Assembly: GCA_942159475.1 (NCBI GenBank)
Contig: OW804094.1
Span: 134,154,755 to 134,218,754 of the forward strand
Length of the DNA: 64,000 nucleotides
Direction: 5' to 3'
From: Sthenelais limicola
Lineage: Eukaryota > Annelida > Polychaeta > Phyllodocida > Sigalionidae
Shown piece by piece: positions 4,000-52,105 of the stretch. Each line of letters opens with the position of its first letter. Position 1 is the stretch's first letter. The translations under genes and the position numbers were made by a program. A model generated the notes under the pieces. The model saw only the letters and a list, made by a program, of their open reading frames with translations. It was not told the origin of the DNA and searched no databases.

Positions 4000-5894
4000 A
4001 CATTTGACGGTACTTGATGGTTGAAAACCGACTACAGCAAGTACACGTAAACCTAACCCGATTTTTAATCAATGGCGAAACAATATTCATGATTTACCTT
4101 AATTCACTATCTACAGTCCGCATCCTGAAGTAATATAAATAATCGTAGGAATAGCATATCGCTCATCTGTGTCAGGCTAAGTTCAATGTCGCTTCTGATT
4201 TGATTTTGCTATTAAATTAGCGCAAATAAAAAAGAAATACAAAATCTGATGATACATTTACACACTTTCAACCTATCACGTACACACTTTCAACCTATCA
4301 CGAAGCTCCTCTCTGGATAGTTACTGTTTTAAGTGTGAAACTTCTGACATTTATATACCAGTTTTCTTCAATATACTTAATATTTTTCTGTTTCAGTCTA
4401 ATTCAGAAGAATTTACTGAATGTTGTCGATTGCAAAGTTCTTACGCTCTTAAACCCATATATCGCGGCTATCATTATGTTTATGCGAAAAATAAATCCCC
4501 ATATCACAATCCCTTCTGGGGATTTAATCTAACTCCTTTGTCCTCTCTTTGACATCTCATTTGGATATTTTCTCCTCTTCAAAAAAATAACAAGGATGAG
4601 AAAACGCAAGCCTCAGTCCACTAGCCTCTCTCCTGGGACTGTATGTGTTGCTGCCAGACGATTTCAGTCTAATAGATCTGGTTCCCCGATCAAATAAGGG
4701 CCAGCCAGTGTAATGCAGACTGATAGACCCCCAGGATTAATTTGTTTTCCCAGAGTTTATTCAAGAGAAAGGGTATTAGTGTCAGCCTTTCTTTCATTTA
4801 CCACAGCTTAACTTACTTAGAAGGTAACCTAGGGAGTAATGGTATGCCTTTTTGCTGGTAACTTTGTCACAGATGTCAAGATGTAACGAACGCCCATTGT
4901 TAACTTATAGGCACTGACTGGATCATGGGCTTCATCTTCATTGATGTTTGATATCTGTATTTATATAAAGGGTTTCAGATGCTTACTTAAACAACTATTA
5001 TACAATTTATCATCGTTTTTTCGTCGCCGTAGCCTTTGTAGATATCTTCTATGTGTATGTTAAATGTGCTTTCTGGGGTTTTCTCCCACCAGCATTCTCC
5101 CCGCCACTAATTCGACAGTCCATAATTAGCAGTTCCGTCAATCATATCGATAAATAAAACCAATTCGATAAAGTGGGTGTGATAAAAATTCGAATTGTTT
5201 AACTTTAATGACGATTCAAAAGCAAACATTTGTGGCATGATCTGAAGTAGACAACCCATTTCATGCATTTAACTCACCCACTAATAGGATTTTATTTCAA
5301 TATTCTTTTATGCAAGGGGCATATGTAATAAATAGTGAATGAAACTCGGCAAGAGTAATTGAATATTGTATTGGACTCAATTGCTGCGCAATCTCTGCCA
5401 AAAAATATGTAATTACTATAGCACCTCGATCTTCTCTATATAGCATGTAGGTATTCCCGAATTATACATGACCACAGATACGTGTACATGTCTCTTTCGA
5501 CGATTTATGCTTATGAATGTACTGAATCACATTCTCCCACCGTTTTTCATTTTAATATAAGCAACAAAAAAAGAATGAATAAATTCGTAATAAACAGGTA
5601 TACCATGTCATAAGCACATGTGCCCTACATGACATATCCATTACAAGGTGTTTGCTCTATGAATAACAGATCCTCTCTAGTACCAAGTCGTCACTATCCC
5701 TGTCAAATTGGGCTGAGGACATATCCGTCTAACAGGGTTCTAACAGCGTTTATAAGTTATAAAGTAATGGATGATTAATGACTAATTAATGTTGATCAAC
5801 AAGTTATCCAGGGGCAAGGCCTTTAAACAGACTATTACAAAAAATGAGTTATAAGGATACTATCAATGGACATATAAGGTGTGATGAGACTTTC
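4000..5894. other. Unassigned DNA with a 22-bp duplication
   Basis: No supported gene. A 22-bp unit beginning TACACACTTTCAACC is repeated exactly in tandem at 4259-4302. About 4350-4450 weakly resembles the inner part of family C. The rest is AT-rich with no recognisable feature. Confidence 0.4.
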
Positions 5895-5959
5895 CAATAG
5901 GGGATTTGCATAGCCGCCATTTTGAATCTAGATTCACATGGAATCATGGGACTAATGGT
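5895..5959 (+). mobile_element. MITE family B, left half (split by insertion)
   Basis: Begins CAATAGGGGATTTGCATAG and runs to GGACTAATGGT, then family B similarity stops abruptly. The continuation expected in an intact copy (GTACAGTATAAAATC) appears at 12083 in the same orientation. The two halves therefore bracket a 6.1-kb insertion. Confidence 0.75.
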
Positions 5960-6222
5960 TAACCCTCTTTTAAAACGGCATTGGAGATTGAGGTCAACCT
6001 CGGTGATCTAGGCCTCGTTTTGGTAGCAGGCTTTGCCCAAGACTCACACAGTTGAGATCTCACACTGTAATTTTTGTTATTCTTCTTATGAAAGTTATTG
6101 ATACTGTAATGGGTAACCATATGCAGTGATATGCAGGATCTAATATTTCTTTTCTTTCCTCCATTCTCTCCTTCTAACTGTTTCTAACTCCTTTCCCACT
6201 CAGCTGTTTCCACCATAGCCCC

Positions 6223-7140
6223 ATGTGTTTAGGTGCAAGACCCATTGGCTGTCTTGCATACCAAGGCCCATATGCGTGGCCAAGTAACTTGTTTCCCTGT
6301 CGATTCTCAATGAAGAAAGTCGAGTTTGATTCGGTTGAGCACTGCTTCGTATATAACAAAGCCATGAAAAATGGACACTTTCAGGTGGCTAGACGTGTGC
6401 TTAAAATGCGGGACCCCTTTGAAATTAAAGATGCTGGGTCGAAACTTGAAACTGACAATGACTGGAAGAAAAATTATGAGGCCTATATGAAGGCTATAAT
6501 CCGCACAAAGTTCGAGTCAAGTTATGAACTGCGTCGCCTACTCTTAGCAACAAACGATATCACCTTAGTGGAAGCTACCGCTGACTGTCGCTGGGGCTGC
6601 GGCTGTTATCTTGGCTCACCGCATCTCAAGTGTCGTACCTGGCAGGGTGATAACAGACAAGGGAAGATACTGATGACAATCAGAGAAGAGCTCAGAGAGA
6701 GGTTCAAACATGAGTTGGTCGACATAAACCCCATATCACCGCCACCTGCACCCATTACTCCATCAAAATTAACACCAAAGTCCAAAGATAAGCTGAAAAT
6801 CAAATACTTCGATAAGTACCCCTCCGAAGAAGAGAATAAGTTACAAGAAAGGGCGAACACAAGTTCTCGTAAAACATCCATTGAAAGCTCTGAAGATGAG
6901 AGTGGAGAGGATGAAATGGAGCTATCAATATCCAAGACCTTAATCGAAAACGTCGCTGAAAATGGGCCTACCCCATTTGACCGCTCAGCCAGCACTCCGA
7001 GAGAACCAAGGGCACCGCCCTCAGGAAATGTGAGATCTAGACGGGGGCGCATGAACACTTCAGCAGCAAGACTTGCCCTTGATTTATCTATGACCGACTT
7101 CCAACAAACAAGACAACGCTTGCAGATGAAAAAGAAATGA
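6223..7140 (+). CDS. NADAR-domain protein (YbiA-like), candidate ORF1 of a retrotransposon
   Basis: This is an intact 305-residue frame from ATG. Residues 13-157 fit the NADAR/YbiA family: SNLFP with N22, FDSVEH with E39, W81, TKF at 95-97, E117, RWGCG at 123-127, and WQGDNRQGKILM at 140-151. Family members act on ADP-ribosyl adducts; those paired with DarT remove ADP-ribose from guanine in DNA, and YbiA acts as an N-glycosidase. Residues about 170-305 form a low-complexity tail: proline-rich, then acidic-serine (about 218-235), then basic (RSRRGR), as in a nucleic-acid-binding tail. A CAG acceptor-like site lies just upstream at 6203, so a spliced host exon is possible. The domain call is good; its role in a transposon is inferred from position. 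Confidence 0.75.
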   Translation: MCLGARPIGCLAYQGPYAWPSNLFPCRFSMKKVEFDSVEHCFVYNKAMKNGHFQVARRVLKMRDPFEIKDAGSKLETDNDWKKNYEAYMKAIIRTKFESSYELRRLLLATNDITLVEATADCRWGCGCYLGSPHLKCRTWQGDNRQGKILMTIREELRERFKHELVDINPISPPPAPITPSKLTPKSKDKLKIKYFDKYPSEEENKLQERANTSSRKTSIESSEDESGEDEMELSISKTLIENVAENGPTPFDRSASTPREPRAPPSGNVRSRRGRMNTSAARLALDLSMTDFQQTRQRLQMKKK

Positions 7141-8183
7141 CTCTCGTGCCCAAGCGAATAAAGGGTGGAGATACACTCAGTATATATGAGTTTCCATCTG
7201 GTAATGAATGGTCTATTGAAATGGTTTAGCATAATTGACTGAACACTGTTCATTCTTTGTCTAACATGTATGTGCCCACTTAGTGTTCTGCGTAGTTCGC
7301 ATATGACATTGTATCTCGCGCTGTCGACAGGAGTATCAATTTATAGGAGCTCCATCCAGGAATAAGTAATCAATGAATTGGTTTAACATAAGGTTTAAAA
7401 CTTCGATCTATCTCTATCCTAGTTATGCCTGGGCCCTTTTTTAGCGACCTGTGTAACTTTAGAGCTTAAGAGACATTATGAAACCCTACCGATCGTCCTA
7501 TCTTAAGTTGAGCCGTGAAGCCACGTGCTAATGTTTTTGTTTACTCAAAAAGGAAAACAAGTTCAGTGTTGGTGTATGGTAATCCCCGCAGCAAATGGTA
7601 GTCAAGCTGTGCATTTGTAAATAGGATAATGTACAAACTTAACCAGGTTTGACATTCATTGCTAAGATATTTTTCTTTTGCGGTAGTAGGTAACATAAAC
7701 TTTTATCGCAAGCGGGACTGTAAAAAAAATCGAAGTTTCTTGAGTGAGGTTGGCATGTATATTTGATGCGGACTAATGTAAATGAAATGGCCGACATCGG
7801 AGCACAGAGCGTGTCACGTACCATCGGGTCGACATGGTTTGGTATAAGGTATGTGAATCATTTCTTGGACTTGTGTTACACTGAGGGAATTTGTTTACCC
7901 TGTTCGCCCATGTTTGATGATTGTCTGTTCTTAATGTATGTTTGGCATGTATGTATGAGTTCAAATATAACTAGATAGATATATGCCGGTGCAGCATGCT
8001 AGCACATGAAACACCGCACGTTACTGACCCGTAGAAGGGACGTTTCTATTTTATATATGCCCAACTGTATTGTCTTATTTGTCTGCCCTTGCAAATATAA
8101 CAACTGTATCTGCATGCGTGAAAAGGCTCGCGTTCATAAAGTTTGTCATGTAAAGAACTCAGTGCAATGTGTAGAGGAACGAA
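7141..8183. other. 1-kb inter-ORF region of the insertion
   Basis: No long frame joins the NADAR ORF to the EN-RT ORF. An AATAAA lies just after the NADAR stop (about 7158), so the two ORFs may be separately expressed. Short frames at 7763-7978 and 8006-8197 lack recognisable domains. The spacer is long for a two-ORF LINE. Confidence 0.45.
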
Positions 8184-11078
8184 ATGGCATTGGTTGAGCT
8201 GAATGATGTAATTGATGAGAAGGGACTAGTTGTCATGTCTTTGAACATTAGATCCCTTCAAAACAAAGTACTAGAGGTCAATGATAGACTATTACGAGGT
8301 AATTTAAACATCTTAGCCCTTCAAGAAACCTGGCTAGGTACATCTGACAATGATCAACAGATACTTGTAAATCCAAGATTTAATTTGTTCAGACTAGATA
8401 GAGGCTCGACAGAAATTGGTGAAAACAAAAAAGGTGGTGGCCTTTGCTGTTTCATAAATGGGAGTTTCAATGTCGACCCTTGGATTTTTGGTGAGCAGAA
8501 TGTCTCAAACAAGGACATTGAGATGCAAATTTTGCAAATTAAACCGGGTTCCAGAAAAAAAATAATTCTATTTAATTGTTACCGTCCGCCAACAGGGGTG
8601 AAACAAGTGTTTATTGAAACCCTGTATGAAACAATCACACTTATCAGGACTAAAAGTAGAAGCTGTAGTATTGTAGTCTGCGGGGATATAAATATCAATC
8701 TGCTAGATACTAGATCAGAACCTTATAGAGAACTGTTATATAAGTTGGGTGAGCTCTCTCTAAAACAACTGATAAGAACCCCTACGAGAGTTAGTTTACG
8801 TTCAGAATCACTTCTGGATATCATAGCTTCTGACCATGAGCATACAAAAAAGGCTGGAGTAGTAAACGTAAACATATCGGATCATTATGCAACATTCATG
8901 ATCATAAAAAAATGTAAAGGGACAATGGAAAAATGTGTTAGGACAGCTAGAAGATACCATCTTATAGACTGGCAGGATTTTGAACAGTACTTGATGGATG
9001 TTAGAATAGACGCCCCCACTATACCAGACGGGGAAACCTCCACAGAGGTTATATGGGAAAAAATGAAAGTAAATTTAAAATATTACTTGGATAAGACATG
9101 CCCTGTAGAGGAAATCAAGGTAATACATAGAGGTAAAATGACACTTGACATTGATACTCTTAATGCTATAAGAAATAGGGATAGGTTATTTAAAATCGCT
9201 AAGACCACAAAGAATGATCAGGACTGGGCAAATGCCAGTCGTAGTAGGAGGGTCGCTGCACGTCTGGTCAGAAATGCGAAGAGAGGGTACATAATGAATG
9301 CCCTAAATAACTGTGAAAATAACAGTAAAAAGTTTTGGAGACATGTTAATGATCTTGTCGGTAAGAAGAAGACCACACTTCCAAGTAGTTTTGTGCACGA
9401 AGGTAAGACTATATCAAACACCGAAGCAAGTAATGTACTAAATGGCATTTTTGAAAGAATGGGTCACTGTGGTATTACTCAAGGCGGTAACTATGAAAAA
9501 TACCTTGATAACCGGGTGCAAAATGTTTTATCAACTCGTATAAATATCACATTGTCAGCTGTTGAAAAAATGATAGATGGTATTGATAAAAGCAAAGGAA
9601 GTGGGTTATCTTGGGTAAACAGTGAAGTGTTAAAATTCTATTTCAAAAAGAATTTACCTGACATCACTAGACTACTAAACCTTTGTGTCAGAACAAGTAC
9701 AATACCTCAGGAATGGAAGGAATTTGTAGTTTCCCCAATTCCAAAATCTGGCAACCCGCGGTTACTTACCAATTTACGCCCGATAGCCCTAGTGCCCCTC
9801 CCCTCGAAACTACTGGAAAACTTTGTATGTGAGTCCCTGAAGTATCATATGGAAAGTAACCATCTGTTCACAGATACTCAGGGGGGGTTTAGGAAGAACT
9901 ACTCCACAAATAGGTCAGTTTTTGAATTTATGGACCCCATTATCAAAAGCATCGATAACGGACACTTAAGTGTAGCTACATACTATGACGTCGCGAAAGC
10001 GTTTAATTGCTTGGACCACAATATACTGAAAAAGAAACTGGAATTTTATCAAATAAATCCCTTGATAGTGAAATTAATAGATAACTATCTGTCAAACCGG
10101 AAACAACGAACTAAAATAAATAATTGTGTCTCAGATTCACTAACCATTGATATGGGGGTACCGCAAGGTAGTGTCATTGGACCGCTAATGTTTATCATAT
10201 ATGTAAACGACCTACCGAATGTCATAAAAAGAGTTAACCATGTTGTAACATCAAAAATCAGTATTTATGCTGATGATACGGCAATCAGCGTCACAGGTGC
10301 AAATCTAAATGAATGTTTAGAAGTCTCACAACAGATTAGTAATGAAATCTCGATGTGGATGAAATATAATAAGCTGCTGTTAAACGCTGGTAAATGTCAG
10401 ATACAAATACTTGGTGGCAGAAATGCCTTGAAAAAAGTGAAATTCAAAGAATTAGGTCCTGTTTACGTGGATGGCAAAGCAGTAAGTATGGCTAAATCAG
10501 TGAACTACCTGGGCTATACCATCGACCCAGTGCTAACCCTAAATCAGCACTTCGAAAAAATGAAGAACAAACTTCAGTTTAGAGTAAATCAGCTGGCTAG
10601 GATTAGGCATTTTATCACAACTCATTTGGCCACCTTAATACTAAAGGTGCATATACTCTCACTAGCTGAATATGGTCTACCATTTCAAAATTTAGCTAAT
10701 AGGGGGACTATAAATAAGGTACAAAGTGTTGTAAATCAAGGGGTCAGACTGGTGTTTATTGGACAGGATCTTACCACTAATGAAATGCAAGATCGTTTAA
10801 ATATAAAAAATATAATAAGAAGAAGCCACATTGCATTAATAGGGCTAATGTGGAACTTTTCTAAGATCCCAAGATATGTACAAGACATGCCAAGAGACAC
10901 TAGACTGGCTACTGGAATAATTCTAAAAGTACCGGTTCCCCGACGAGAAAAGTTAAGAAAGTCTCCGCACATGTTAGGCCCTCTAATGTGGAATGGGCTG
11001 CCAGCTATACAAAAGGCAAAGAACTGGCCAAATTTAAAAGGCTTTCTTAAAACAAATGAGGATTGGATACTTAACTAA
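8184..11078 (+). CDS. LINE ORF2: apurinic-type endonuclease + reverse transcriptase
   Basis: This intact 964-residue frame starts at ATG. The EEP endonuclease spans about 15-240: N21 (SLNIRS), E48 (LQETW), CYRPP, D168/N170 (GDIN) and D233-H234 (SDHY). The RT spans about 470-760: LRPIALVP, motif A D602 (YYDVAKAFN), motif B GVPQGSVIGP and motif C YADD at 695-698. All catalytic residues I can identify are present. The C-terminus has the MLGPLMWNGLP block typical of CR1/Jockey-group LINEs; there is no RNase H and no C-terminal zinc knuckle. It would nick target DNA and copy its own RNA by target-primed reverse transcription. An intact frame suggests a recent, possibly active copy. The clade call (CR1/Jockey group) is from overall look only. 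Confidence 0.92.
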   Translation: MALVELNDVIDEKGLVVMSLNIRSLQNKVLEVNDRLLRGNLNILALQETWLGTSDNDQQILVNPRFNLFRLDRGSTEIGENKKGGGLCCFINGSFNVDPWIFGEQNVSNKDIEMQILQIKPGSRKKIILFNCYRPPTGVKQVFIETLYETITLIRTKSRSCSIVVCGDININLLDTRSEPYRELLYKLGELSLKQLIRTPTRVSLRSESLLDIIASDHEHTKKAGVVNVNISDHYATFMIIKKCKGTMEKCVRTARRYHLIDWQDFEQYLMDVRIDAPTIPDGETSTEVIWEKMKVNLKYYLDKTCPVEEIKVIHRGKMTLDIDTLNAIRNRDRLFKIAKTTKNDQDWANASRSRRVAARLVRNAKRGYIMNALNNCENNSKKFWRHVNDLVGKKKTTLPSSFVHEGKTISNTEASNVLNGIFERMGHCGITQGGNYEKYLDNRVQNVLSTRINITLSAVEKMIDGIDKSKGSGLSWVNSEVLKFYFKKNLPDITRLLNLCVRTSTIPQEWKEFVVSPIPKSGNPRLLTNLRPIALVPLPSKLLENFVCESLKYHMESNHLFTDTQGGFRKNYSTNRSVFEFMDPIIKSIDNGHLSVATYYDVAKAFNCLDHNILKKKLEFYQINPLIVKLIDNYLSNRKQRTKINNCVSDSLTIDMGVPQGSVIGPLMFIIYVNDLPNVIKRVNHVVTSKISIYADDTAISVTGANLNECLEVSQQISNEISMWMKYNKLLLNAGKCQIQILGGRNALKKVKFKELGPVYVDGKAVSMAKSVNYLGYTIDPVLTLNQHFEKMKNKLQFRVNQLARIRHFITTHLATLILKVHILSLAEYGLPFQNLANRGTINKVQSVVNQGVRLVFIGQDLTTNEMQDRLNIKNIIRRSHIALIGLMWNFSKIPRYVQDMPRDTRLATGIILKVPVPRREKLRKSPHMLGPLMWNGLPAIQKAKNWPNLKGFLKTNEDWILN

Positions 11079-11656
11079 AAACCATGTCTTTGTAATTTCA
11101 TATATAACTCTTCACACCCTGTCTTCCGATGTAAGGATTTGTCCCTCGTCGCTATGGATGGGTAAATGTGGGTTTATTTTCGAGATACTAGACAAAATGG
11201 TGTAATGAGTGAACTTATCTGGAAATGGTGCATAAGAAGTAGACCTATGTGTTTTTACCTACGCAGACTGTATTATTATGTATTTTAGACTATGTGTCAG
11301 GGCATCAAAAATCACAAAAAAAGGGGTTGCATGATATTTTTCTATAATTCATGAGAAAGTAAGTGTGGGGAGGGATGGCAGTTGAATCGCTGTCATTGGA
11401 TGACCAATGCATCTGCTATCTCTCCTTCGCTAAAGAAGACACCAGGATGGAGTTGTCTGATTTATATTAGTAATGTATGAAATCGTAGTATAGAAACTGT
11501 ATAAAGCCTTAATGGTGTAAATTGGTAAAAGAAGTAAAAGATTAAGTTTGAAAGTTAGTTATAAATGATAATAGTATATGGGATTGAAATTTTTGTCGGC
11601 GATTGAAATGTATCACATCATGTGAAATCTTGTCGAATAAACATTTTTAAAAAAAA
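11079..11656 (+). other. LINE 3' UTR with poly(A) signal and A-rich end
   Basis: Non-coding sequence follows the ORF2 stop. GAATAAACATTTTT is followed directly by a run of A at about 11648-11656, as expected of a polyadenylated LINE RNA. No matching duplication of the following TTACGTCATGTCATACC was seen upstream in the insertion. Confidence 0.6.
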
Positions 11657-12082
11657 ATTACGTCATGTCATACCTCGCTGCTCATGTCTCCCTGCAACCT
11701 GAATTTTATCTCCACCACATGCAGTGGTCAGTGCTGTGCAGCATGGCGATCCACTCACCAATCTCCACCATAGGCTTATATAAATGTAACCCTCAGTAGC
11801 TTTTACACCTTCCACTCTCCCCTCTCCCTCTGTGACCTTCTCTCTCTCTCCTTTCTTATTTGCTAAACTAATAATATTTTTAAATATTCTTAAGTTTTGA
11901 TTATTATATTTCGATTTCAAATAGATTTCCAGTGTTCATTTTTAGAAGTATGGTTTTTTCTTAATAATAAAGATATTGTTACCATTTTTTTCAGGATATA
12001 CCTAAAGAAATTATATAACTATACACCATATAAATATTAATCTTTGCTTTTTGGTCTGTGGGTTCAAGTGCCAAAGGCACTT
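11657..12082. other. Sequence between LINE A-tract and resumed MITE
   Basis: No gene. It includes a pyrimidine-rich stretch (about 11800-11870) and ends with a perfect 8-bp stem, 3-nt loop hairpin at 12065-12083 (CAAGTGCC AAA GGCACTTG). It is either part of the retrotransposon 3' end or of an older insertion. Confidence 0.45.
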
Positions 12083-12197
12083 GTACAGTATAAAATCTAT
12101 AGGAACAAGCCATGTTCAGCATGGGATATTAAATTATATCAATGCTCTTTTGCCTTATCATCTATCATACATATAGAGATTTATTAACCAAGGTATG
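12083..12197 (+). mobile_element. MITE family B, right half (split by insertion)
   Basis: Resumes with GTACAGTATAAAATCTATAGG and CCATGTTCAGCATGG. After about 12155 it is internally deleted, ending near ACCAAGGTATG. It is the partner of 5895-5959. Confidence 0.65.
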
Positions 12198-15358: not shown

Positions 15359-16568
15359 AATATTATATGATAATTGTGTTCGATTGGTGAAAAGCAAGTC
15401 AATATCATCACAGCCCATTTTAAAGAGATTTACACAGCAGTGAAAGATAAGTTATACACTCAAGACGACAGAAATAGTGATTGGTACGATCGTTTTTTGC
15501 AGAAAAATATTGATATTTCGAATATAGAATTTAAAGTATGGTATCGTGTTCCTTTTCTATGTACTAGAAATGTGAGACTACAGTCGTTCCAGTATGGTGT
15601 TATTAATAAATTAACTGTTTGCAACGTTCACCTGAATGATATGGATATAGTAACCTCCAATTTATGTAAATACTGCGATTCGGTAGATGATTTATTTCAT
15701 TTCTTCATAGATTGTCAAAAATCATGTGATTTTTGGTTTAGTTTAATAAACTGGGCCAAAAAGAATGAATATCTTGATAAAGAAATATCGGAAAACATGA
15801 ACGCAATATTCATAATGTTGGGTATTCCAAGTCTGGAAGAAAAATACTGCGTTTGGAATTATATTCTAATATACGCGAGATTTTATATATATAAATGTCG
15901 ACTGTTTAAAGAAAACAAGTTATGCTTCTTTGAGTTCCTAAGGGAATTAAAATTTAAGTTGAAAGCAATGAGAGATGGGGCATTTGTTAATGCTTCACAT
16001 AAGAAAGACTGGAGGAGGTGGGAAAAAATATTTGATACAATATAGGATTAAGAAGTTAAATCCAGTAATCAGTGTTTAAGCAGCCCCCCCCCCCCCCCGT
16101 CAAACTGTGCATTCTTAGGATATAAACAATGTCGATGAAAATGATCTGGTAACCAATGCCTAGTCAAGTTGGTGAGAAAATGCCAAATATGTGGTCTTCT
16201 TTGATTCTTAATATGACCCCCCCCCCCCCCCGGTGCTATCGGTGGGTCGAATCAATGGGTGCTCGATCGCAGTGGAAGCTATGTCATTTTTGTATAATTT
16301 CTTGCCTTTTTTATTTTTTGATCTGTAAACCTGTGATACCTAATGTTTATCCTAGGTTCCACATATATTTAATGTTTTAAAGCAGAATAGTCAAGGTGGA
16401 TAGAGAAATGAAAAACAACGAATATGCTTGGTATATAAAATGTTTTATTTTAGGTCATTGTGAAAAAAAGAAGCGATGTATCTAATGTAAACGCTTCTCA
16501 GTGTTGACTCTGTCTACCTCGGAAATAAAGACCCGGTGTTGGGAAAAAAAAAAAATATTATATGATAA
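15359..16568 (+). mobile_element. 5'-truncated L1/Tx1-like LINE with 15-bp target-site duplications
   Basis: The 15-mer AATATTATATGATAA occurs at 15359-15373 and again at 16554-16568, immediately after the poly(A) run. The insert carries only the C-terminal end of a LINE ORF2, then a 3' UTR with two runs of 15 C (16084-16098, 16217-16231), an AATAAA at about 16522 and poly(A). This is a textbook 5'-truncated target-primed insertion. Confidence 0.9.
15374..16045 (+). pseudogene. C-terminal fragment of L1/Tx1-like LINE ORF2
   Basis: The open frame begins directly after the target-site duplication, so it has no native start. It shows LQSFQYGVINKL, then a zinc-knuckle-like CKYC...HFFIDC (C-x2-C-x7-H-x4-C) and an FWFSLINW block. 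This is the order seen after the RT domain of L1/Tx1-group ORF2 proteins. No RT catalytic motifs remain, so it cannot encode a working polymerase. The remaining frame is uninterrupted to TAG, which implies a fairly young insertion. Confidence 0.8.
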
Positions 16569-17162: not shown

Positions 17163-17372
17163 CAATAGGGGATTTGCATGTCTCACTGCGCATGTCTACT
17201 GCAGTGCATGTTGGGATGGATTCTGTTCAAATCTGACATACAAATATTGGCAATATTTTTATCGAAAATTGCAAGAATGTTTTCACCAATATCATAGCTT
17301 TTATAAACGATATATGAAAACAAAATGCATGATGGGAAAGATGAAGTCTTGTGTTATGGAAACATGTATACA
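17163..17372 (-). mobile_element. MITE family B, reverse, truncated
   Basis: Starts CAATAGGGGATTTGCATG, with GCATGTTGGGATGGATTC and GCATGATGGGAAAGATGAAG as in reverse copies. Similarity is lost after GGAAACATGTATA. Confidence 0.72.
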
Positions 17373-23340: not shown

Positions 23341-23696
23341 CATATAGGGGGTTTGCATAGCCGCCATTTTGGATCTTGAGTCCTCGCATGGAATTATGGG
23401 ACTAATGGTAGGCCTACAGTATAAAATCTATAGAAAACATGCCATGTTCAGCAAGGAATATTTATCAGTGCTCTAATGTCAATATCCATGTGTTATACAT
23501 GTTTCCAAAACACAAGCCTCCATCTTTCCCGTCATGCATTTGTTTTTCATAGAACATTTACAAAAGCTATGATATTGGTTAAAAGATCCTTTCATTTTTC
23601 GATAAAAATGTTGCTAAATATTGTCAGATTTCAACTGAATCCATCCCAGCATGCATTGTAATATGCATGCGCAGTGAGACATGTGAATCCCCTATT
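23341..23696 (+). mobile_element. MITE family B, near full length
   Basis: Left end TAGGGGGTTTGCATAGCC, YY1-like GCCGCCATTTTGG, CCCAGCATGCATTG and right end GTGAATCCCCTATT. It has a small GGCCTA duplication after GGACTAATGGTA. Confidence 0.8.
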
Positions 23697-37992: not shown

Positions 37993-38784
37993 AAATAAAT
38001 ACTACATTGTAATCATCATTGATACAAAAAAGTGATTCCTGTTCAATACCTCCCTGTCTTATTGCCTCAAAGGTGACGCTCATAAAGTCGAATAAAGTCT
38101 CTTGATTCCCCATTACCAAAGTTGAATCAATAGGGGCTTTCTTTGTTAGCTCTAAATCGTAATGAAAACAATCGTTTCCTGACTATTCAGCGTCCATCAA
38201 CCTTGGAATTGCGACATTCTTTTGTTGGCTCCGGTTTTGTTTTCATGCTCGGCTCGGCTGCGATTGGACACTTTATCTTCATCAGCATTGTTACTTTAAT
38301 TCATGATATTCAACCACAAACAACACCTAATATTTGATTAGAGATTGAAAACTAATTACCATTTTGTTTTCACCTTCTTTCTACGTCTTCTTTCTTCGCC
38401 AATATATTTTCAATGACAGAACATTAGGCAAGTAAATCTAGTTACAAAATTGAAAAGTTCAGATCAATGTGATCTAGTATCAATTGATTTGTCGATGACT
38501 GAAACAAAATGCATGGGACTAGTAATTATAAGAAAGCACGAAAATAATAAAGATCAAAGAGGTTTTGAAGATTTCCTAATTTGCTAGCGATATTAAATGA
38601 CGGGTTCAGAAATTGAAATAATACTGGATGGTAAACGGATGTTGTGTTTTTTTTAAATAAATTGTATTGAGTTCAATTTAGCTTAGTTTAATCATAGTCT
38701 CTATGCGTTATTGAGATATAATTATTTGTTTAATTTCCAGACATCAAGAAAGATATACAGACGGATTGTACCCATTCCCATTTT
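37993..38784. other. Unassigned DNA
   Basis: No supported gene. The 64-codon frame at 38143-38337 has no recognised domain. Confidence 0.35.
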
Positions 38785-39131
38785 CAATAGGGGATTTAGA
38801 TAGCCGCCATTATGAACCTTGATTTGCAAGGAACTATTGGACTAATGGTACAGTCTAAAATCTATAGAAAACATGCCATGTTCAGCATGGAATATTTATC
38901 AGTGCTCTAATGTCAATATTCATATATTAAACATGTTTCTAAAACACAAGTCCCCATCTTTCCCATCATGCATTTGGTTTTCATAGATCATTTATACAAG
39001 CTATGATATTAGCGAAAACATTCTTTCGATAACAATGCTGCTACATAAATTTGTATGTCACATTTCAACAGAATCCTTCCCAGGATGCACTGTAATAGAC
39101 ATGCGCTGTGGCACATGCATATCCCCTATTG
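38785..39131 (+). mobile_element. MITE family B, full length
   Basis: Starts CAATAGGGGATTTAGATAGC and ends CATATCCCCTATTG. It contains GCCGCCATTATGAA, CCATGTTCAGCATGG and CATCATGCATTTGG. It is the best reference copy in the window. Confidence 0.85.
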
Positions 39132-41902: not shown

Positions 41903-42625
41903 TTAATCGATATTGGTTGATCTATAATTCTGTTCTTGGTCGACGATGCTCCCTCTGCTTAGGAAGCTGTGGCTGGACAGAACCATGGACATGCCAGAAA
42001 ACCGTCGGAATGACGACCTTCGGCAAACTGTGCGTAAAAAAGCAGACCTGAACTTAGTGGAAACAACATTGTAGATCACCGGATTGATGGCACTATTCAG
42101 ATAAAACATAATCCTTGAAAAGGAGAGGACATGCATGTAGCCTTCAAATCCTAGGTCCGCCTTATCCTTCTCACTACTGTAGATGTTCCACAGGGTGAAC
42201 ACCCGCATTGGAAACAAACAAAGGAAGAAGAGAATAATTAGTATGGCCAGCATAACTATGACTTGTTTTCGAGTTCGCAGCGTCTGCGATGAAGAGGCAC
42301 CCCTGTTTCTTTGATTGGTTAATCCAGTGTGGGTTGACCGACTGAGGGAAGATTCCCGGGCTAGTTGCCTTCCAAGAAACCCATACAATAAGGGTAGTAG
42401 CATTGATGGTATTACGAACAAGAGCACAGTGATTGTTATGATGTAAGCCTTTTCTTTCTCTGTAACTATAGGAACTCCACATAAGGTTACGTTCCTCTGA
42501 AAGATGTAGTGATACGTCTCCTCTGTCTTGGCTATGAAGAGGAAAGGAATGGCTGATCCAATAGCCACAACCCAGAGAGCGCAGATGATCTTCATCGCTC
42601 GTGCAGTTGTGCAGGTATATAGCAC
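41903..42625 (-). CDS. Last exon of a TRH-receptor-like rhodopsin-family GPCR (TM4-TM7)
   Basis: The minus-strand exon starts after a CCCCACAG acceptor (GTG CTA TAT...) and ends at a stop at 41903. It encodes TM4 (KIICALWVVAIGSAIPFLF), ECL2 with NVTLCGVP (glycosylation site and disulphide Cys), TM5, a Ser/Thr/Arg-rich ICL3, TM6 with FFLCLFPMRV, TM7 with NSAINPVIYN (NPxxY) and a short C-tail rich in Ser/Arg. RIMFYLNSAINPVIYN and TKFRSAF resemble thyrotropin-releasing-hormone receptors; growth-hormone-secretagogue or neuromedin-type receptors are alternatives. It is expected in the plasma membrane as a G-protein-coupled peptide receptor. The splice phase (0) fits the exon at 47329-47432. TM1-TM2 exons were not found and probably lie upstream, beyond the window or in unrecognised DNA. 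Confidence 0.9.
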   Translation of the reverse strand: MLYTCTTARAMKIICALWVVAIGSAIPFLFIAKTEETYHYIFQRNVTLCGVPIVTEKEKAYIITITVLLFVIPSMLLPLLYGFLGRQLARESSLSRSTHTGLTNQRNRGASSSQTLRTRKQVIVMLAILIILFFLCLFPMRVFTLWNIYSSEKDKADLGFEGYMHVLSFSRIMFYLNSAINPVIYNVVSTKFRSAFLRTVCRRSSFRRFSGMSMVLSSHSFLSRGSIVDQEQNYRSTNID

Positions 42626-43319
42626 CTGTGGGGAAATAAAATGATTGTGTTTATTAGAGAGAACTAAATTAAAGACTATCAGGATTTTCAAAATATTCAG
42701 AAAAAAAACTGTACTTTTTACCTTCTCAGTTCCTGAGAAGGTTAGTGGATCGAGTACCATTCTGTCAATCATCTTGTTATCGTTTAAATCCCACATAAAT
42801 GTGTTAGCTGATTGTGGGATGTGTGAGGTAACAATCAGTGTGAAATCATCTGTCTGACCAGTTCGCATGTTTGCAGAAGGCTTATCTACTCCACCCATTT
42901 CTCACATCCACCATATACCACTCCACCCTGCCCCCTCTGGTTATTACATAATAAGACAAACCAGGCCTGCCCCTAACCCAGTCATGGTTGGTTGCCCACG
43001 CCCTCCCTTGCCTTCCAGCTCCCTCCCTCCCTCCCTAGCCTTCCACCCATTACCCCCATCTCTCTTTCTCTCTCTCACTCTGAGTGCTGTTTTAATGCAT
43101 TCTACTAATTTTAGAGAGATGCACCTTAAAAACCCAAAATCATAATTACTTTAACAGACCTTTTACTGACCTCAGGAACCCTGTATATGACAGTATATAC
43201 CCTCTATATGACAGTAAATATTCTGCATTTTCAGTTTGAGAAAGACTAAATTTCAGTAACTATGACTTGACGATTTGGCGTCAAAAGTGGCCATATTTAT
43301 GGCCTATATAGGTCATACC

Positions 43320-47950: not shown

Positions 47951-48156
47951 AAATATACACAGTCGACTCATCGACGCTCATATTTGGGCGGGAGCAGATC
48001 ACGTGGACTTTGACCACGCCCATTTCCTCACAGCCAATCAGATCGTCGCACCTCTACTATGATGCGCTATCATGCATGTCAACATTCGCACGTTCTATTG
48101 TTTACTGTTGAACTGGTCGCCTCACCGCTCAGACGTGTTTGAACTCAAAATTTTTT
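47951..48156 (+). repeat. Ngaro repeat A1 (also probable promoter)
   Basis: 206 bp matching A2 except T/C at the GATGCG/GACGCG position. It contains GGGCGGG, CACGTG and CCAATCAG, which look like promoter elements reading into the gag ORF. Confidence 0.9.
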
Positions 48157-48190
48157 ATTTTGAGTTGAATCTTCGGATTTTGGTGTCAAG

Positions 48191-49024
48191 ATGAATCCTA
48201 AGGGCAGCAAAGCGTGTGTGAAATGTAACACTGTTCACAAACCTCCAGTTGGGGATGGTTGTGAGAAACCTGAGGCCGATCCGATTACAGAATCTGAAAA
48301 GGTGAATACTCGTATTGACGGCTTGGAGTCTTTGGTTCGTGGCCTATGCTCGACGATGGAGAAGAACATTGCAGCCATGAATTCTTCTTCTGTTCCTGTT
48401 GCCTCTACTTCGGCTGAAAGCAATGACACGGTGACTTTCAAGCCTAGAAGCTCGAGTGTGGAGAGTTCGATTTACGCGGTGGGCGGATCTTCTGCTAGAA
48501 CAACTCGTGGCAGATCAAGGTCTCGGTCCCGGCCACGCCCCTTTGACCAGCGAAAGGATCTCGATAAAGGTGAATCTATTGAGTCCATAGAAAAGTTGCT
48601 GCTGTTGAATTTAAAATTGGTTGCCAAGCTTGTCGACGATGACAGGCCTTTAGAGGAAATCAGTGGGGTTGTTAACCATTGCATAACTGTTTGTGAGAAG
48701 TCTGGATCCCAGGTCTACGCTCTGAAAGCCAGTATATCTTACGACCAAGCTGTCAGGTCGCGTGCAAACAAGGCGGGGCTTGCAGCTTTCGCGGACGTCA
48801 GACAAGAGGAGATTCTACGATGCTACTCATACGAGAATTCCCGTAAGGCTACTACTGTTACCAAGTCAGCTAGTTCAAAGTCTAAGAAGGACAAAATATG
48901 CTTCAAATTTAATAACCCTGGTGGGTGTGGCAAGTCGGCATCTTCGTGTGAGTTTCCGCATAAGTGCTCGTCGTGCGGATCATCGGAACACGGAGCTAAG
49001 TCGTGTACGGTTAAAGCTAAATAG
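48191..49024 (+). CDS. Ngaro ORF1, gag-like zinc-finger protein
   Basis: 277 residues from ATG. The N-terminus has CVKC...C (possible zinc ribbon); the centre is Ser-rich with RGRSRSRSRPRP. The C-terminus has a CCCH finger (C237, C246, C253, H257) followed by a CCHC knuckle CSSCGSSEHGAKSC (C259, C262, H267, C272), the usual arrangement in DIRS/Ngaro gag proteins that bind element RNA. It ends at TAG (49022-49024). The RT frame continues in the same reading frame directly after that stop, so gag-RT could be one readthrough polyprotein or the stop could separate two proteins. Confidence 0.85.
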   Translation: MNPKGSKACVKCNTVHKPPVGDGCEKPEADPITESEKVNTRIDGLESLVRGLCSTMEKNIAAMNSSSVPVASTSAESNDTVTFKPRSSSVESSIYAVGGSSARTTRGRSRSRSRPRPFDQRKDLDKGESIESIEKLLLLNLKLVAKLVDDDRPLEEISGVVNHCITVCEKSGSQVYALKASISYDQAVRSRANKAGLAAFADVRQEEILRCYSYENSRKATTVTKSASSKSKKDKICFKFNNPGGCGKSASSCEFPHKCSSCGSSEHGAKSCTVKAK

Positions 49025-50425
49025 GATGAGGCGAGTGAGAGAGAAAATGTGTCTAAGGTGGGTCTTTGTGTAGAAAATGTTTTTACTTTGCCTATCATCG
49101 ATTGTGTTAATATTGTCGATGGAATTTGTGACCCAGTGAACTTTGTTCCGACTGACCCGGATGTTGATTCTTGTGGCCATGGTGAACCGGAAGTGGTTCC
49201 TGTTGGAAGAACTGTCATGGCGGCCAAGGTGGACTTGCTTCGTTCGAACATGACTTTGACAAGTGATTATTTTCCTCTCTCACTTCCTCCCCATACTCAA
49301 CACAGCTCTAACCGAAATGAAGGTATTTATGATGATATTCGTGACATTATTGCGGACTTTGGTGACAATGGTACTAATGTGAATGATGATGTTATCCTAT
49401 TTGAAGCTCCTGCTTCGCCTAAAGGTCGTGTAGTTAAAATCTTTGCCTCATGTGCTCGTGGTGATTGTAGCTGTAACCATACGTTGGGAGGTATTAGTAC
49501 CCAACTCAAACCTTGCAGATTTGCATATTTACTCTTCGGTCTTGATAACACTGCTGTTAATATGTATCTCGATGTTTATCACGGTATTGTTGATGGGTTT
49601 GATGTAGTTGACCAAGAGGTCGAACCTTATGTCTGTGACAACTATAAATCTATTCTCGAACCAGCTGTCAAAGGTAAAATGGATGATATTGTAGTGAAAG
49701 AACTAAGCGAAGGTTATATTTCTCGTAGTGATAGTTTACCAACTTGTATTCACTCATTAGGGGCTGTCCCTAAATCTGATGGGGGCATTAGGCCCATCAC
49801 CGACTGCAGTAGACCCATTGGCTGTTCTGTAAATGATCATTGTGCATCCCTGGTTCGTGAATTTTCTTATAATTCTATTGACGATGCTGTTAGATTTATC
49901 AATCCTGGTAGTTTCATGGCAGTTGTAGATATCAAATCTGCCTATAGGGCTGTGCCAATTAACCCTGACCACCGTCGTTTTTGTGGTTTCAGATGGGAAA
50001 TAGATGGTAAAGAACATATGTATGTCGACAATCGTTTGTGTTTTGGCCTTCGTACTGGGCCATGTATTTTCAACCATATATCTGACTTTTTCACTGCTTG
50101 CATTCGTGAATATTTTGACTGTCAGATTGTTAATTTTCTAGATGACTTCTTTGTCTGCCATGATGTTTATGAAATGTGTACCAAGGGCCAAAATGCTGTG
50201 TTGGCTTGCCTCAGATATATGGGATTTCATGTGGCGTGGAAAAAGGTGTCTGCTCCCTCAACCAACTGTGTATATTTGGGATTCAACTTGGACTCTGCTA
50301 TGATGACCATTTCCCTTCCCCCTGGAAAAGTGGAGAAGTTGGCAAGGCTGATAGATGATGTGAAATCTTTGAAGTACATCTCTAAGAAACAATTGGAACG
50401 TTTCTGTGGCTACATCTCCCATTGA
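49025..50425 (+). CDS. Ngaro reverse transcriptase (frame ends before RNase H)
   Basis: This is in frame with ORF1 after one TAG; the first in-frame ATG lies at about 49217. RT motifs: GGIRPITDCSRPIG, motif A MAVVDIKSAYRAVP, motif B LCFGLRTGPCIFNH and motif C NFLDDFF. The frame ends CGYISH-stop at 50425, where family members continue through a conserved thumb segment into RNase H. The next segment (DLYKVMLAQRLSR) is found in another frame, so a short deletion with a frame change is likely at about 50420. Confidence 0.82.
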   Translation, partial: DEASERENVSKVGLCVENVFTLPIIDCVNIVDGICDPVNFVPTDPDVDSCGHGEPEVVPVGRTVMAAKVDLLRSNMTLTSDYFPLSLPPHTQHSSNRNEGIYDDIRDIIADFGDNGTNVNDDVILFEAPASPKGRVVKIFASCARGDCSCNHTLGGISTQLKPCRFAYLLFGLDNTAVNMYLDVYHGIVDGFDVVDQEVEPYVCDNYKSILEPAVKGKMDDIVVKELSEGYISRSDSLPTCIHSLGAVPKSDGGIRPITDCSRPIGCSVNDHCASLVREFSYNSIDDAVRFINPGSFMAVVDIKSAYRAVPINPDHRRFCGFRWEIDGKEHMYVDNRLCFGLRTGPCIFNHISDFFTACIREYFDCQIVNFLDDFFVCHDVYEMCTKGQNAVLACLRYMGFHVAWKKVSAPSTNCVYLGFNLDSAMMTISLPPGKVEKLARLIDDVKSLKYISKKQLERFCGYISH

Positions 50426-51158
50426 CTTATATAAGGTCATGCTTGCCCAGAGGCTCTCCAGGATTATGCTTTCCAGTGATGCTATGCTCGACCTAAAATG
50501 GTGGGACTCATTCTCCAGGGTGTTTAATGGTGTAGGAGTTCTCAAACGCCCAGAATATCATTTACCTATGGTATCAGACGCCTCCTCAAGAGGTTTTGCT
50601 GCCTTCTTGGGCCAGGATTGGTTTGCTGGAACTTGGAGAGATGGTGTTATACCTACTGGTATGTCTCTCGATAATCATATCTGCCCTACCCCCTCAGAGG
50701 AAGAATTGGCAAGTAACATTAACATTCAGGAATTATATCCCATTGTGGCTGGGGTAAGACGTTGGGCCAGTGAGTTGAAAAACAAGGCTCTTGTGTGTTT
50801 TATAGATAACACCCAGGTGATTGCCATGCTTAAGAATGGGACCAGCTCGAGCAAACAGTGCATGCAATGGTTATATGAACTCAACTGGATGTGTTTCATA
50901 TTTAATATTGCATTAATTCCGAAGTATATTAACACCCATAACAATGTAGTAGCTGACGCTCTATCTCGTCTTCCCTATTTAGAGTTAGATGCTCCTGTTC
51001 CTGATATTTTGAGTGCAGCTAATTTGTGTTGTATTAACAACTGTGAATTTGTGTGCTGCAGGCTTGGACATTTGGATGAGAAGAGTAGATATATTGAAGA
51101 ATCTCTCTCTAGCACCTTCAACTCGGCGACAAAGAGAGAGACAGTGGAGCATGTTTAA
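50426..51158 (+). pseudogene. Ngaro RNase H part (different frame from RT)
   Basis: Starts within DLYKVM and has the four RNase H acidic positions: SDASSRG, NIQELYP, CFIDNTQ and VVADALSRL. It removes the RNA strand during cDNA synthesis. It lacks its own convincing ATG and depends on the RT frame, from which it is shifted. The 3' part overlaps the recombinase frame by about 80-145 nt. The domain looks intact in itself; the break upstream is what disables it, unless frameshifting is programmed. Confidence 0.78.
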
Positions 51159-51996
51159 CTCCTTCCTCCAGGACAATTCGTCTGTGTTGCTCCCCATTGA
51201 TGTGTCAAAACTAACAGCTTTTGCTGCGTTTTTGTCATCTTTTATGAAACATAACTCCATTTCTACATATTTATCTGGTGTGATATCCTATGCCCGGAGC
51301 TAGGACTTGGACTGCCCCACCTTATCACACCCTTCCATCAAAGCAGTTTTGAGAGGTATTAGGAAATTGCCTGGTGCTTCACCCTCTCCAGCTTTACCCA
51401 TGACTCTAGGAATTCTCTCAAAAATGTATTCCCACTTGGACACTAGTGATAATCTAAACTTGCTATGCTGGGCAGCTTATCTGTTCATGTTTAGATCCCT
51501 TCTGAGAGTGAGTCATGTTGTGTGTTCCCCTCATACCATTTGTCGTAGTGATGTGAAAATGTCTACTGAATTACTGACTGTGAGGATTGGTTCCTCTAAA
51601 ACTTCTGATGAACCATACTTCATTTATTTGAAGCCTATTTCCATTAAGTCCCTATGCCCAGTACACTGGGTCAGGAAGCTGTTGAATCAACCCCTTCCCA
51701 GCTCATCACCGCTTTTCTCTTGTGCAGACTTGAAAATTTTTTCTTATGAGAAAATCTCGAACAATTTAGCTAATTTGCTATCTGCTTCAGCTGTGGGCCC
51801 TGGATATTCGACCCACTCATTTCGTCGTGGCGGGGCATCCTTCCTATCGTCATTGGGCATCCCCCTTCAGGAAATTAAGTTGAAAGGACACTGGAGGTCT
51901 TCTGTTGTGGAATCCTATGTCATTCCTTCTCCCAAAGACCATTTAAAGTGTGAGGACTATGTCGTCGCCGCCATGGAAAAACTCTCTTCTTCTTAG
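51076..51996 (+). pseudogene. Ngaro tyrosine recombinase with one in-frame TAG
   Basis: An ATG at 51076 opens the SAM-like N-domain (LAPSTRRQRERQW). A TAG at 51301-51303 interrupts just after ISYARS, and the same frame continues to TAG at 51994-51996. The catalytic set is present: R in LLRVSH, K in SSKT, HSFRRGG (H and R), GHW and Y in VESYV. The enzyme would join circular cDNA to the target. With the stop read literally it is truncated before every catalytic residue. Confidence 0.85.
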
Positions 51997-52005
51997 GTTT
52001 GGCTT

Positions 52006-52105
52006 TTGCTGATGAATAAACCATGCTTTGCTTGGTTTCTGGCCAACCTTGTGTATTCGTTCCTTCTTCATCTAATATTATATCTATCGTCGTACGTCCA
52101 AATAT
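52006..52105 (+). repeat. Ngaro repeat B1
   Basis: About 100 bp from TTGCTGATGAATAAACC to CGTCCAAATAT, identical by eye to B2. It contains an AATAAA signal. Confidence 0.88.

What the first reader, a model, noticed from the sequence alone, without database searches (positions are those of the whole stretch)
5960..12082. NADAR-domain ORF paired with a LINE EN-RT ORF: a possible retrotransposon carrying an ADP-ribose-processing enzyme
Seen: an intact 305-codon NADAR frame and an intact 964-codon endonuclease/RT frame lie on the same strand within one 6.1-kb block that interrupts a MITE. Known: NADAR/YbiA enzymes act on ADP-ribosyl or related N-glycosidic adducts, and those paired with DarT reverse guanine ADP-ribosylation in DNA. 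Some animals encode guanine-specific DNA ADP-ribosyltransferases (pierisin-like proteins, including in shellfish). Inference: the NADAR protein is the element's ORF1 and may protect its RNA or cDNA from ADP-ribosylation-based host defence. I know of no described LINE with a NADAR ORF1, but I could not search.
Basis: partly seen in the sequence, partly recalled or inferred. Interest (0 to 1): 0.88.

Follow-up and report, generated by a model that had tools for sequence, protein, structure and literature searches.

The report
LINE retrotransposons carrying a NADAR domain
A group of jumping genes in this animal genome carries, fused into what looks like its RNA-binding protein, an enzyme domain of a kind that strips ADP-ribose from nucleic-acid bases, and keeps it better conserved than its own copying enzyme, which suggests that the domain matters for how these elements spread.

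Summary
The two frames are real: NADAR at 6223-7140 (Pfam E 1.2e-27) and EN-RT at 8184-11078, same strand. The window's own genome shows what they are. The LINE is 6246-11657, ending in poly(A), and this copy is 5'-truncated: the '305-codon ORF' is the C-terminal half of a ~600-codon ORF1. The rest of the 6.1-kb block is other repeats. Full-length ORF1 is coiled coil, RRM-like region, NADAR, low-complexity tail. All 20 NADAR loci fetched from the first search (129 rows) have EN-RT downstream, as do 4 of 5 distant ones; three capped searches give at least 302 distinct NADAR loci. NADAR and ORF2 distances correlate (Mantel r 0.92 and 0.96, 0 of 5000 permutations). NADAR is better conserved than the RT in 44 of 45 pairs and keeps its catalytic residues. 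Three sampled relatives add a hydrolase-like middle ORF. So NADAR is an inherited, constrained domain of a LINE ORF1p. That it removes ADP-ribose from the element's RNA or cDNA is inferred. Prior art: a 2025 paper notes NADAR-like ORF1s in oyster Tx1 LINEs; whether this is that clade is unresolved. New variant of a known kind.

The parts
5891..5959 (.). left half of the interrupted MITE
   Evidence: self-BLAST to other copies in the window, e.g. 38781-38849, 23344-23409, 58331-58268; alignment
5960..6231 (.). foreign dispersed repeat; not part of the LINE
   Evidence: 40 other rows in the genome, none reaching beyond 6234 (the query began at 5960, so the left edge rests on the MITE junction alone); absent from the other LINE copies
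6246..11657 (+). 5'-truncated LINE copy, 5.4 kb; a full-length subfamily member is ~6.6 kb
   Evidence: 98.1-98.9% nt identity to L011-L015 inside this span only; L011 3073-9670 as full-length reference
6223..7140 (+). open frame holding the C-terminal ~297 codons of ORF1; first ~8 codons come from the flank
6268..6696 (+). NADAR domain (frame residues 16-158), catalytic-type residues E39, K46, E117, with D121 and W124
   Evidence: PF08719 E 1.2e-27; YbiA fold by Foldseek, TM 0.70 by target length to 2b3w; residues mapped on 8bau
6697..7137 (+). low-complexity C-terminal tail of ORF1p (Ser/acidic stretch, basic end)
   Evidence: alignment A1; pLDDT mostly below 50 except the last helix
7141..8183 (+). 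ORF1-ORF2 spacer (~1.04 kb); no coding remnant found
8184..11078 (+). ORF2, endonuclease plus reverse transcriptase, 964 aa
   Evidence: 99% copies
8235..8894 (+). APE-type endonuclease region (residues 18-237)
   Evidence: PF14529 above cut-off, PF03372 below cut-off
9738..10523 (+). reverse transcriptase domain (residues 519-780)
   Evidence: PF00078 E 3.5e-27
11636..11657 (+). AATAAA signal and poly(A), 3' end of the LINE
   Evidence: shared 3' ends of L011 and L015
11660..12082 (.). foreign dispersed repeat whose last 17 bases form a perfect hairpin AAGTGCC-AAA-GGCACTT
   Evidence: 51 other rows in the genome (the query was cut at 11660 and 12082, so the right edge rests on the MITE junction); fold
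12083..12148 (.). right half of the interrupted MITE

Best explanation
The window holds a recent, 5'-truncated copy of an APE-type LINE whose ORF1 protein has a coiled coil, an RRM-like region and a built-in YbiA-type NADAR domain. Shown here: NADAR is inherited with the EN-RT ORF across many diverged families, its main ADP-ribose-binding and catalytic residues are kept, and it is the best conserved part of the element. Inferred: ORF1p coats the element's RNA as an oligomer, and the NADAR domain acts in that particle as an ADP-ribosyl-guanine hydrolase, cleaning ADP-ribose from the element's RNA or single-stranded cDNA so that host ADP-ribosyltransferases (defence enzymes or DNA-damage PARPs) cannot block reverse transcription or integration. 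The window copy itself has lost the ORF1 N-terminus and is probably not a working ORF1.
For: Fusion and co-occurrence: 20 of 20 NADAR loci fetched from the first search carry EN-RT downstream on the same strand, plus 4 of 5 from a separate family search. 23 of 39 EN-RT rows complete at the 5' end have a listed NADAR 895-1324 bp upstream, against a chance of about 0.0002 per row, from capped lists. Architecture: alignment of 14 full-length ORF1s; NADAR E 1e-25 to 3e-29 in 5 of 5 scanned. Co-inheritance: Mantel r 0.919 and 0.96, each 0 of 5000 permutations. Constraint: NADAR identity exceeds the RT in 44 of 45 pairs and EN in 45 of 45; dN lower than ORF2 in 8 of 8 between-family pairs. Active site: equivalents of P. 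nicotianae E43, K50, K75, W89, E125, D130, W133 invariant in 14 of 14. Fold: YbiA 2b3w and 8bau are the only PDB matches with E up to 0.001. NADARs of an oomycete, E. coli and a phage hydrolyse guanine-linked ADP-ribose (PMC11543638, PMC11125620, passages). NADARs of eukaryotic RNA viruses are proposed to remove host-made ADP-ribose conjugates (PMC9503650 passages). Shellfish pierisin relatives that ADP-ribosylate guanine are noted in PMC8385414 (passages).
Against: No activity, expression or substrate was measured. R79 and R93 of the oomycete enzyme are not kept. A guanine ADP-ribosyltransferase was not looked for in this genome. The RRM-like region gets no Pfam hit and only weak PDB hits (E 0.29-0.34), so RNA coating rests on resemblance. 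In nematodes NADAR residues are needed for SL1 trans-splicing with unknown chemistry (PMC9303266 passages), so other RNA-linked roles are possible.
Confidence: 0.5

Rival explanations
1. NADAR in ORF1p is an active enzyme, but its substrate is not base-linked ADP-ribose on the element's nucleic acid. It might process NAD-derived caps or ends of the element's RNA, soluble ADP-ribose signals, ADP-ribosylated RNP proteins, or another N-glycosidic adduct as YbiA does in riboflavin metabolism.
For: YbiA acts on riboflavin intermediates and viral NADARs are also proposed to act on RNA-processing products or soluble ADP-ribose derivatives (PMC9503650 passages). NADAR residues are needed for nematode trans-splicing (PMC9303266 passages). 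The Ectocarpus authors suggest processing of the RNA intermediate. All the conservation data here fit equally well.
Against: Characterised NADARs of several subfamilies share guanine de-ADP-ribosylation (passages).
Confidence: 0.35
2. The NADAR fold is kept for binding only (RNA, ADP-ribose or a partner protein), without catalysis.
For: It sits in a protein that looks nucleic-acid-binding; NADAR pI is 9.1-9.5 in 4 of 4 proteins computed.
Against: Catalytic-type Glu, Lys and Glu are invariant in 14 of 14 ORF1s. In the second, wider set both glutamates are kept in 14 of 14 and the Lys in 13 of 14, with Arg in the other.
Confidence: 0.1
3. NADAR is a host gene or stray neighbour that the LINE landed beside or picked up once.
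For: In the window alone the spacing is wide (1.04 kb) and the flanks are composite. One NADAR locus of 25 fetched (L039) has no EN-RT in its 2 kb.
Against: At least 302 distinct NADAR loci; single frame with the ORF1 N-terminal domains; tree congruence; 20 of 20 loci with EN-RT downstream.
Confidence: 0.01
4. This is simply one of the Tx1 LINEs with a NADAR-like ORF1 already noted in oyster, so nothing beyond further copies.
For: PMC12477816 reports divergent Repbase hits to ORF1 of several C. gigas Tx1 families. With the EN-plus-RT profile human L1 ORF2p is the top PDB hit, 137.8 bits, and with the RT-only profile it is still first, 109.2 bits.
Against: The RT-only score for L1 is barely above the best R2 (103.2 bits), and R2 lacks that endonuclease (recalled), so L1 would lead the first list anyway. 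The L1 row reads RQGCPLSP where 7 of 7 here read VPQGSxxGP. The single sequence scores R2 (39.0 bits) and 8c8j (38.5 bits) alike; 8c8j carries no element name in the output, but its residue offset to the L1 chains (237) suggests that it is an L1 fragment.
Confidence: 0.25

Closest known systems
NADAR-like ORF1 of Tx1 LINEs in Crassostrea gigas (a passage in PMC12477816, Genome Biol 2025; passages seen)
   Same: LINE ORF1 protein with a YbiA-family NADAR domain
   Different: There: named briefly as divergent Repbase hits, assigned to Tx1. Here: architecture, copy numbers, co-inheritance, constraint and active site shown; the RT matches L1 and R2 about equally. I could not compare sequences (Repbase not held).
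[quoted passage not shown]
   Same: a retroelement with a conserved YbiA-type NADAR
   Different: LTR element, domain in Pol; here a non-LTR element, domain in ORF1p
NADAR domains in polyproteins of animal RNA viruses (PMC9503650, passages seen)
   Same: a selfish RNA-based element carrying NADAR, proposed to counter host ADP-ribosylation
   Different: positive-strand RNA viruses with RNA-dependent RNA polymerase; here a retrotransposon
Type II ORF1 (coiled coil-RRM-CTD) of L1 and some CR1/L2 elements (PMC4120745; abstract, one section and passages seen)
   Same: order coiled coil then RRM-like region
   Different: a NADAR domain and tail follow; PF02994 does not match; the text of that survey of 448 Jockey-superfamily elements has no NADAR or YbiA
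Type IV (esterase) ORF1 of CR1/L2 elements (PMC4120745)
   Same: an enzyme domain in a LINE accessory ORF; L036-L038 have a GDSL-like middle ORF
   Different: here the hydrolase-like frame is a separate ORF between a NADAR-ORF1 and ORF2
YbiA-subfamily NADARs, such as P. nicotianae NADAR (PDB 8bau) and E. coli YbiA (2b3w)
   Same: fold and main active-site residues
   Different: not part of a retrotransposon protein; 27% identity in the structural alignments

Membership tests
NADAR/YbiA superfamily | profile match above the curated cut-off | tested here: met
   97.6 bits against cut-off 35.1 in the window; 91-103 bits in 5 of 5 full-length ORF1s scanned
NADAR/YbiA superfamily | YbiA fold | tested here: met
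   AF2 block pLDDT 80-93 over residues 21-110 but 60.6 overall, 4-row alignment; Foldseek prob 1.00 to 2b3w and 8bau
NADAR/YbiA superfamily | catalytic Glu/Lys/Glu, with Glu at the E125 position (YbiA type) | tested here: met
   E335, K342, E413 invariant in 14 of 14
NADAR/YbiA superfamily | hydrolysis of guanine-linked ADP-ribose | not testable with these tools
   needs protein
APE-type non-LTR retrotransposon (LINE) | APE endonuclease plus reverse transcriptase in ORF2 | tested here: met
APE-type non-LTR retrotransposon (LINE) | poly(A) 3' end and 5'-truncated copies | tested here: met
APE-type non-LTR retrotransposon (LINE) | target-site duplications | tested here: inconclusive
   12 bp (A-rich) in L016 and 10 bp in L015; 7 bp in L011 and 6 bp in L018 could be chance; none in L017 or the window (6 copies tested)
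L1/Tx1 group | L1-like reverse transcriptase | tested here: inconclusive
   RT-only profile: L1 ORF2p 109.2 bits, best R2 103.2; EN-plus-RT profile: L1 137.8, best R2 110.7; RQGCPLSP in L1 against VPQGSxxGP in 7 of 7
CR1/L2/Jockey group | placement of ORF2 in a tree with named members | not tested
   no named references held; the VPQGSxxGPLxF motif as typical of this group is recalled
Type II ORF1 (CC-RRM-CTD) | RRM plus CTD | tested here: inconclusive
   no PF02994 hit in 5 of 5; the RRM-like profile's three PDB hits are two CUGBP1 entries and L1 ORF1p, E 0.29-0.34; strand-helix order in a low-confidence model of P0121 fits
Type IV (esterase) ORF | GDSL/SGNH hydrolase domain in the L036-L038 middle ORF | tested here: inconclusive
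   PF13472 E 0.0086, below cut-off, in 1 of 3; the three are homologous to each other, E 8e-53 to 2e-18

The most novel reading that the evidence does not exclude
Animal cells restrict retrotransposons by ADP-ribosylating guanines in their RNA or cDNA, and a whole LINE lineage has answered by building an ADP-ribosyl hydrolase into its RNA-coating protein, where it became the most constrained domain of the element.
Probability: 0.3. Interest if true: 0.92.

Novelty: new variant of a known kind. Interest (0 to 1): 0.74.

Why it matters
LINE ORF1 proteins are usually thought of as RNA chaperones. Here an ADP-ribose-processing enzyme fold is fused to one, found at hundreds of loci, and more conserved than the reverse transcriptase. 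That makes a direct test possible: does nucleic-acid ADP-ribosylation limit retrotransposition in animals, and is NADAR the counter-measure? The roles of NADARs in animals are described as unclear (PMC11125620 passages). It also suggests that some animal 'NADAR genes' in annotations may be retrotransposon ORFs (inference). Families with NADAR, a hydrolase-like ORF and EN-RT would extend the known range of LINE accessory enzymes.

Tried and rejected
Rejected: the 6.1-kb block as one element; NADAR as a host gene beside a LINE; ORF2 copies without NADAR as a NADAR-less variant (4 of the 16 such rows checked, 4 of 4 cut off at or within the spacer). Led nowhere: protein search with the window frame (0 of 2436 candidates passed); viral-contig scans with either protein (0 relatives); a target-site duplication for the window copy; tRNA and Rfam scans (0 hits); PF02994 or significant PDB support for the RRM-like region; a hydrolase remnant in the window's spacer; literature under DUF1768 with 'transposable element' and YbiA with 'non-LTR retrotransposon' (0 papers each). 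dN/dS between families could not be given because dS is saturated. The clade of ORF2 stays unresolved. No listed copy of the left flank repeat lies next to a listed copy of the right one (compared by eye), so whether they are two ends of one outer element is open.

Dropped rows: alignment A1 used 14 of the 16 full-length ORF1s in L011-L030 (near-identical L016 and L017 left out). The other four loci (L011, L012, L014, L015) have ORF1s lacking part of the N-terminus. The ORF2 comparison used the 10 lineages, of the 14 in the first tree, with an ORF2 frame of at least 840 codons. The first tree used L012 for the window subfamily and one in-frame piece each for the broken ORF2s of L019, L021, L027 and L029. 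EN-RT rows: 12 of the 16 without a listed NADAR were not examined. Family search: 5 of 150 rows were fetched.
Full report
OBSERVATION. NADAR PF08719 matches residues 16-158 of the first (E 1.2e-27, 97.6 bits, cut-off 35.1); RVT_1 and Exo_endo_phos_2 match the second above cut-off and Exo_endo_phos below it. NCBIfam agrees (riboflavin-intermediate N-glycosidase TIGR02464, 90.2 bits, cut-off 73.7). Neither protein has a second recognisable copy in the window. Copies of a short MITE elsewhere in the window align to 5891-5959 and to 12083-12148 as neighbours, so 5960-12082 is inserted sequence; only 'GT' is shared on both sides.

BOUNDARIES. The window's own genome is held (1.13 Gb, 161 contigs). 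The five closest copies (L011-L015) match the window only within 6246-11657, at 98.1-98.9%. The 5' edge at 6246 appears in L011, L012 and L013; L014 and L015 are themselves truncated further in. The 3' end at 11657, poly(A) after AATAAA, is shared by L011 and L015; the other three stretches end before it. Left of 6246, 5960-6231 is a dispersed repeat with 40 other rows, none reaching past 6234. Right of the LINE, 11660-12082 is another, with 51 other rows. My queries were cut at 5960, 11660 and 12082, so only the MITE junctions mark those outer edges. The LINE is therefore nested in other repeats. Relatives show poly(A), 5' truncation and, in some, target-site duplications: 12 bp (A-rich) in L016, 10 bp in L015; 7 bp in L011 and 6 bp in L018 could be chance; none in L017 or the window copy.

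ORF1. In 16 of the 20 NADAR loci fetched (L013, L016-L030) the NADAR frame has 578-648 codons stop to stop. The window frame begins inside it: 'GCLAYQGP...' follows ~296 codons of ORF1 in L013 but 8 flank-derived codons in the window. Fourteen full-length ORF1s (alignment A1) share a variable N-terminus, a coiled coil, a conserved region of about 170 residues, NADAR and a low-complexity tail. The conserved region has no Pfam match in 5 of 5 scanned. Its profile's three PDB hits are two CUGBP1 entries (RRM proteins, recalled) and human L1 ORF1p, all weak (E 0.29-0.34), and a low-confidence model of the foreign homologue P0121 shows an RRM-like strand-helix order. I call it RRM-like, not proven.

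CO-OCCURRENCE. All 20 loci, of the 129 rows of the first search, have EN-RT downstream on the same strand. In the other direction, of 47 scored EN-RT rows, 39 reach the start of ORF2; 23 of these have a listed NADAR 895-1324 bp upstream, and 0 of the 8 truncated inside ORF2 do. One NADAR row lies near an EN-RT row on the opposite strand. Both lists are capped, so 23 is a lower bound. I fetched the upstream DNA of 4 of the 16 rows without a listed NADAR: 4 of 4 are cut off at or within the ORF1-ORF2 spacer; the other 12 were not examined. Three capped NADAR searches give at least 302 distinct loci; 101 of the 150 family-search rows have an open frame of at least 550 codons. Of 14 control genomes, 3 hold NADAR.

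CO-INHERITANCE AND SELECTION. For 14 lineages the NADAR and ORF2 trees share 8 of 11 splits (permuted labels: mean 0.13, maximum 4) and distances correlate at r 0.919 (0 of 5000 permutations as high); RRM-like against ORF2, 8 of 11 and r 0.848; RRM-like against NADAR, 7 of 11 and r 0.775. In a second set of 14 that includes four distant elements, r is 0.96 (0 of 5000) and 6 of 11 splits are shared. The unshared splits mean that the trees are close, not identical. NADAR has mean pairwise identity 0.608, RRM-like 0.526, N-terminus 0.357, tail 0.359 (91 pairs). On 45 pairs NADAR (0.612) exceeds the RT (0.557) in 44, EN (0.499) in 45 and whole ORF2 (0.494) in 45. dN is lower in NADAR than in ORF2 in 8 of 8 between-family pairs, and lower than in the RRM-like region in 7 of those 8 (not L018/L020); dS is saturated there. 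Among close copies of the window subfamily NADAR has 6 synonymous and 1 nonsynonymous changes in 157 codons (5 sequences), the tail 8 and 5, ORF2 29 and 33 in 971 (6 sequences); these numbers are small.

ACTIVE SITE. The profile alignment to P. nicotianae NADAR (8bau) places ORF1 residues E335, K342, K365, W377, E413, D417, W420 (L013 numbering; subtract 296 for the window frame) on E43, K50, K75, W89, E125, D130, W133; all are invariant in 14 of 14 (residue roles from a passage of PMC11543638). The offset of two between chain index and paper numbering is my inference from the match. R79 and R93 are not conserved. Glu at the E125 position marks the YbiA subfamily (passages of PMC11125620 and PMC11543638). 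In the second set both glutamates are kept in 14 of 14 and the Lys in 13 of 14, with Arg in L038; that Arg change in E. coli C7 NADAR still allows hydrolysis in vitro. The outside homologue P0121 keeps the two glutamates and the Lys but not the Asp. The predicted window domain matches YbiA (TM 0.70 by target) and 8bau, and nothing else at E up to 0.001.

RELATIVES BEYOND THIS FAMILY. A profile search of 5.8 billion proteins (7995 candidates scored) finds 3: P0121 (E 7.9e-50), with coiled coil, RRM-like region and NADAR, and two weaker proteins whose NADAR is joined to other domains. Five rows of the NADAR family search were sampled, 5 of 150. L035 has NADAR-ORF1 then EN-RT. L036, L037 and L038 have NADAR-ORF1, then a 236-315-residue frame with DSRG and DGLHP-like motifs (GDSL/SGNH-type, recalled; PF13472 E 0.0086, below cut-off, in L036 only), then EN-RT. 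L039 is a stand-alone 162-residue NADAR frame without EN-RT in the 2 kb fetched.

CLADE. ORF2 is APE-type. A profile of EN plus RT ranks human L1 ORF2p first (137.8 bits; best R2 110.7). An RT-only profile gives L1 109.2 and best R2 103.2. The single sequence scores R2 39.0 and 8c8j 38.5 bits; 8c8j is unnamed there, and its residue offset of 237 to the L1 chains suggests an L1 fragment. The L1 row reads RQGCPLSP where seven of seven here read VPQGSxxGP, which I recall as typical of CR1/L2/Jockey-type LINEs. The clade is not settled.

PRIOR ART. Passages of PMC12477816 report NADAR in an Ectocarpus Gypsy Pol and say that ORF1 proteins of several C. gigas Tx1 LINEs appear to contain NADAR, with a suggested role in processing the RNA intermediate. 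Searches for NADAR with retrotransposon (20 of 104 papers listed), NADAR domain, NADAR with LINE and ORF1, NADAR with transposon, DUF1768 and YbiA listed no other paper that I recognised, from titles and abstract starts, as describing it. The text of the Jockey-superfamily ORF1 survey (PMC4120745) has no NADAR or YbiA.

MECHANISM. Shown: an enzyme fold with its main active-site residues is an inherited, highly constrained part of a LINE ORF1p. Inferred: ORF1p brings it to the element's RNA and cDNA, where it removes ADP-ribose from guanine. Characterised NADARs do this (passages), NADARs of eukaryotic RNA viruses are proposed to undo host ADP-ribosylation (passages), and shellfish guanine-modifying relatives of pierisin are noted in PMC8385414. 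I give the structural claim about 0.97 and the mechanism about 0.5. The main rival is another NAD- or RNA-linked substrate, which the same data fit.

Noticed in passing
L036:2626-3333 (+), L037:4410-5348 (-), L038:3544-4488 (-): Three-ORF LINEs: NADAR-ORF1, a GDSL/SGNH-like middle ORF, then EN-RT ORF2; the middle ORFs are homologous to each other (E 8e-53 to 2e-18). A reverse-strand match to the same frame (E 9e-10) lies upstream in L019 at 1757-2203.
   Followed up: partly
L039:949-1434 (-): Stand-alone 162-residue NADAR frame (E 3.2e-31); two more rows of the family search have the same frame length. The neighbouring 223-residue frame has no Pfam match.
   Followed up: partly
5960-6231 and 11660-12082: Two dispersed repeats around the LINE, the right one ending at the MITE junction in a perfect hairpin; perhaps the two ends of one outer element, though listed copies of the two are not adjacent.
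   Followed up: partly
47951-52310: Likely LTR retrotransposon: 211-bp direct repeats, 99% identical, around frames with RVT_1 (49025-50422) and a below-cut-off RT_RNaseH.
   Followed up: partly
41906-42901 (-): Single 332-residue open frame with a rhodopsin-family 7TM domain (PF00001 E 4.4e-21).
   Followed up: no
15374-16042 (+): 223-residue frame with a weak zf-RVT match (E 0.0029, below cut-off), perhaps the end of another LINE type.
   Followed up: no
1908-2260, 17163-17370, 23344-23696, 38786-39131, 57964-58331 and others: Several multi-copy short repeat families lie in the window (self-BLAST), including the interrupted MITE.
   Followed up: no
   Followed up: partly
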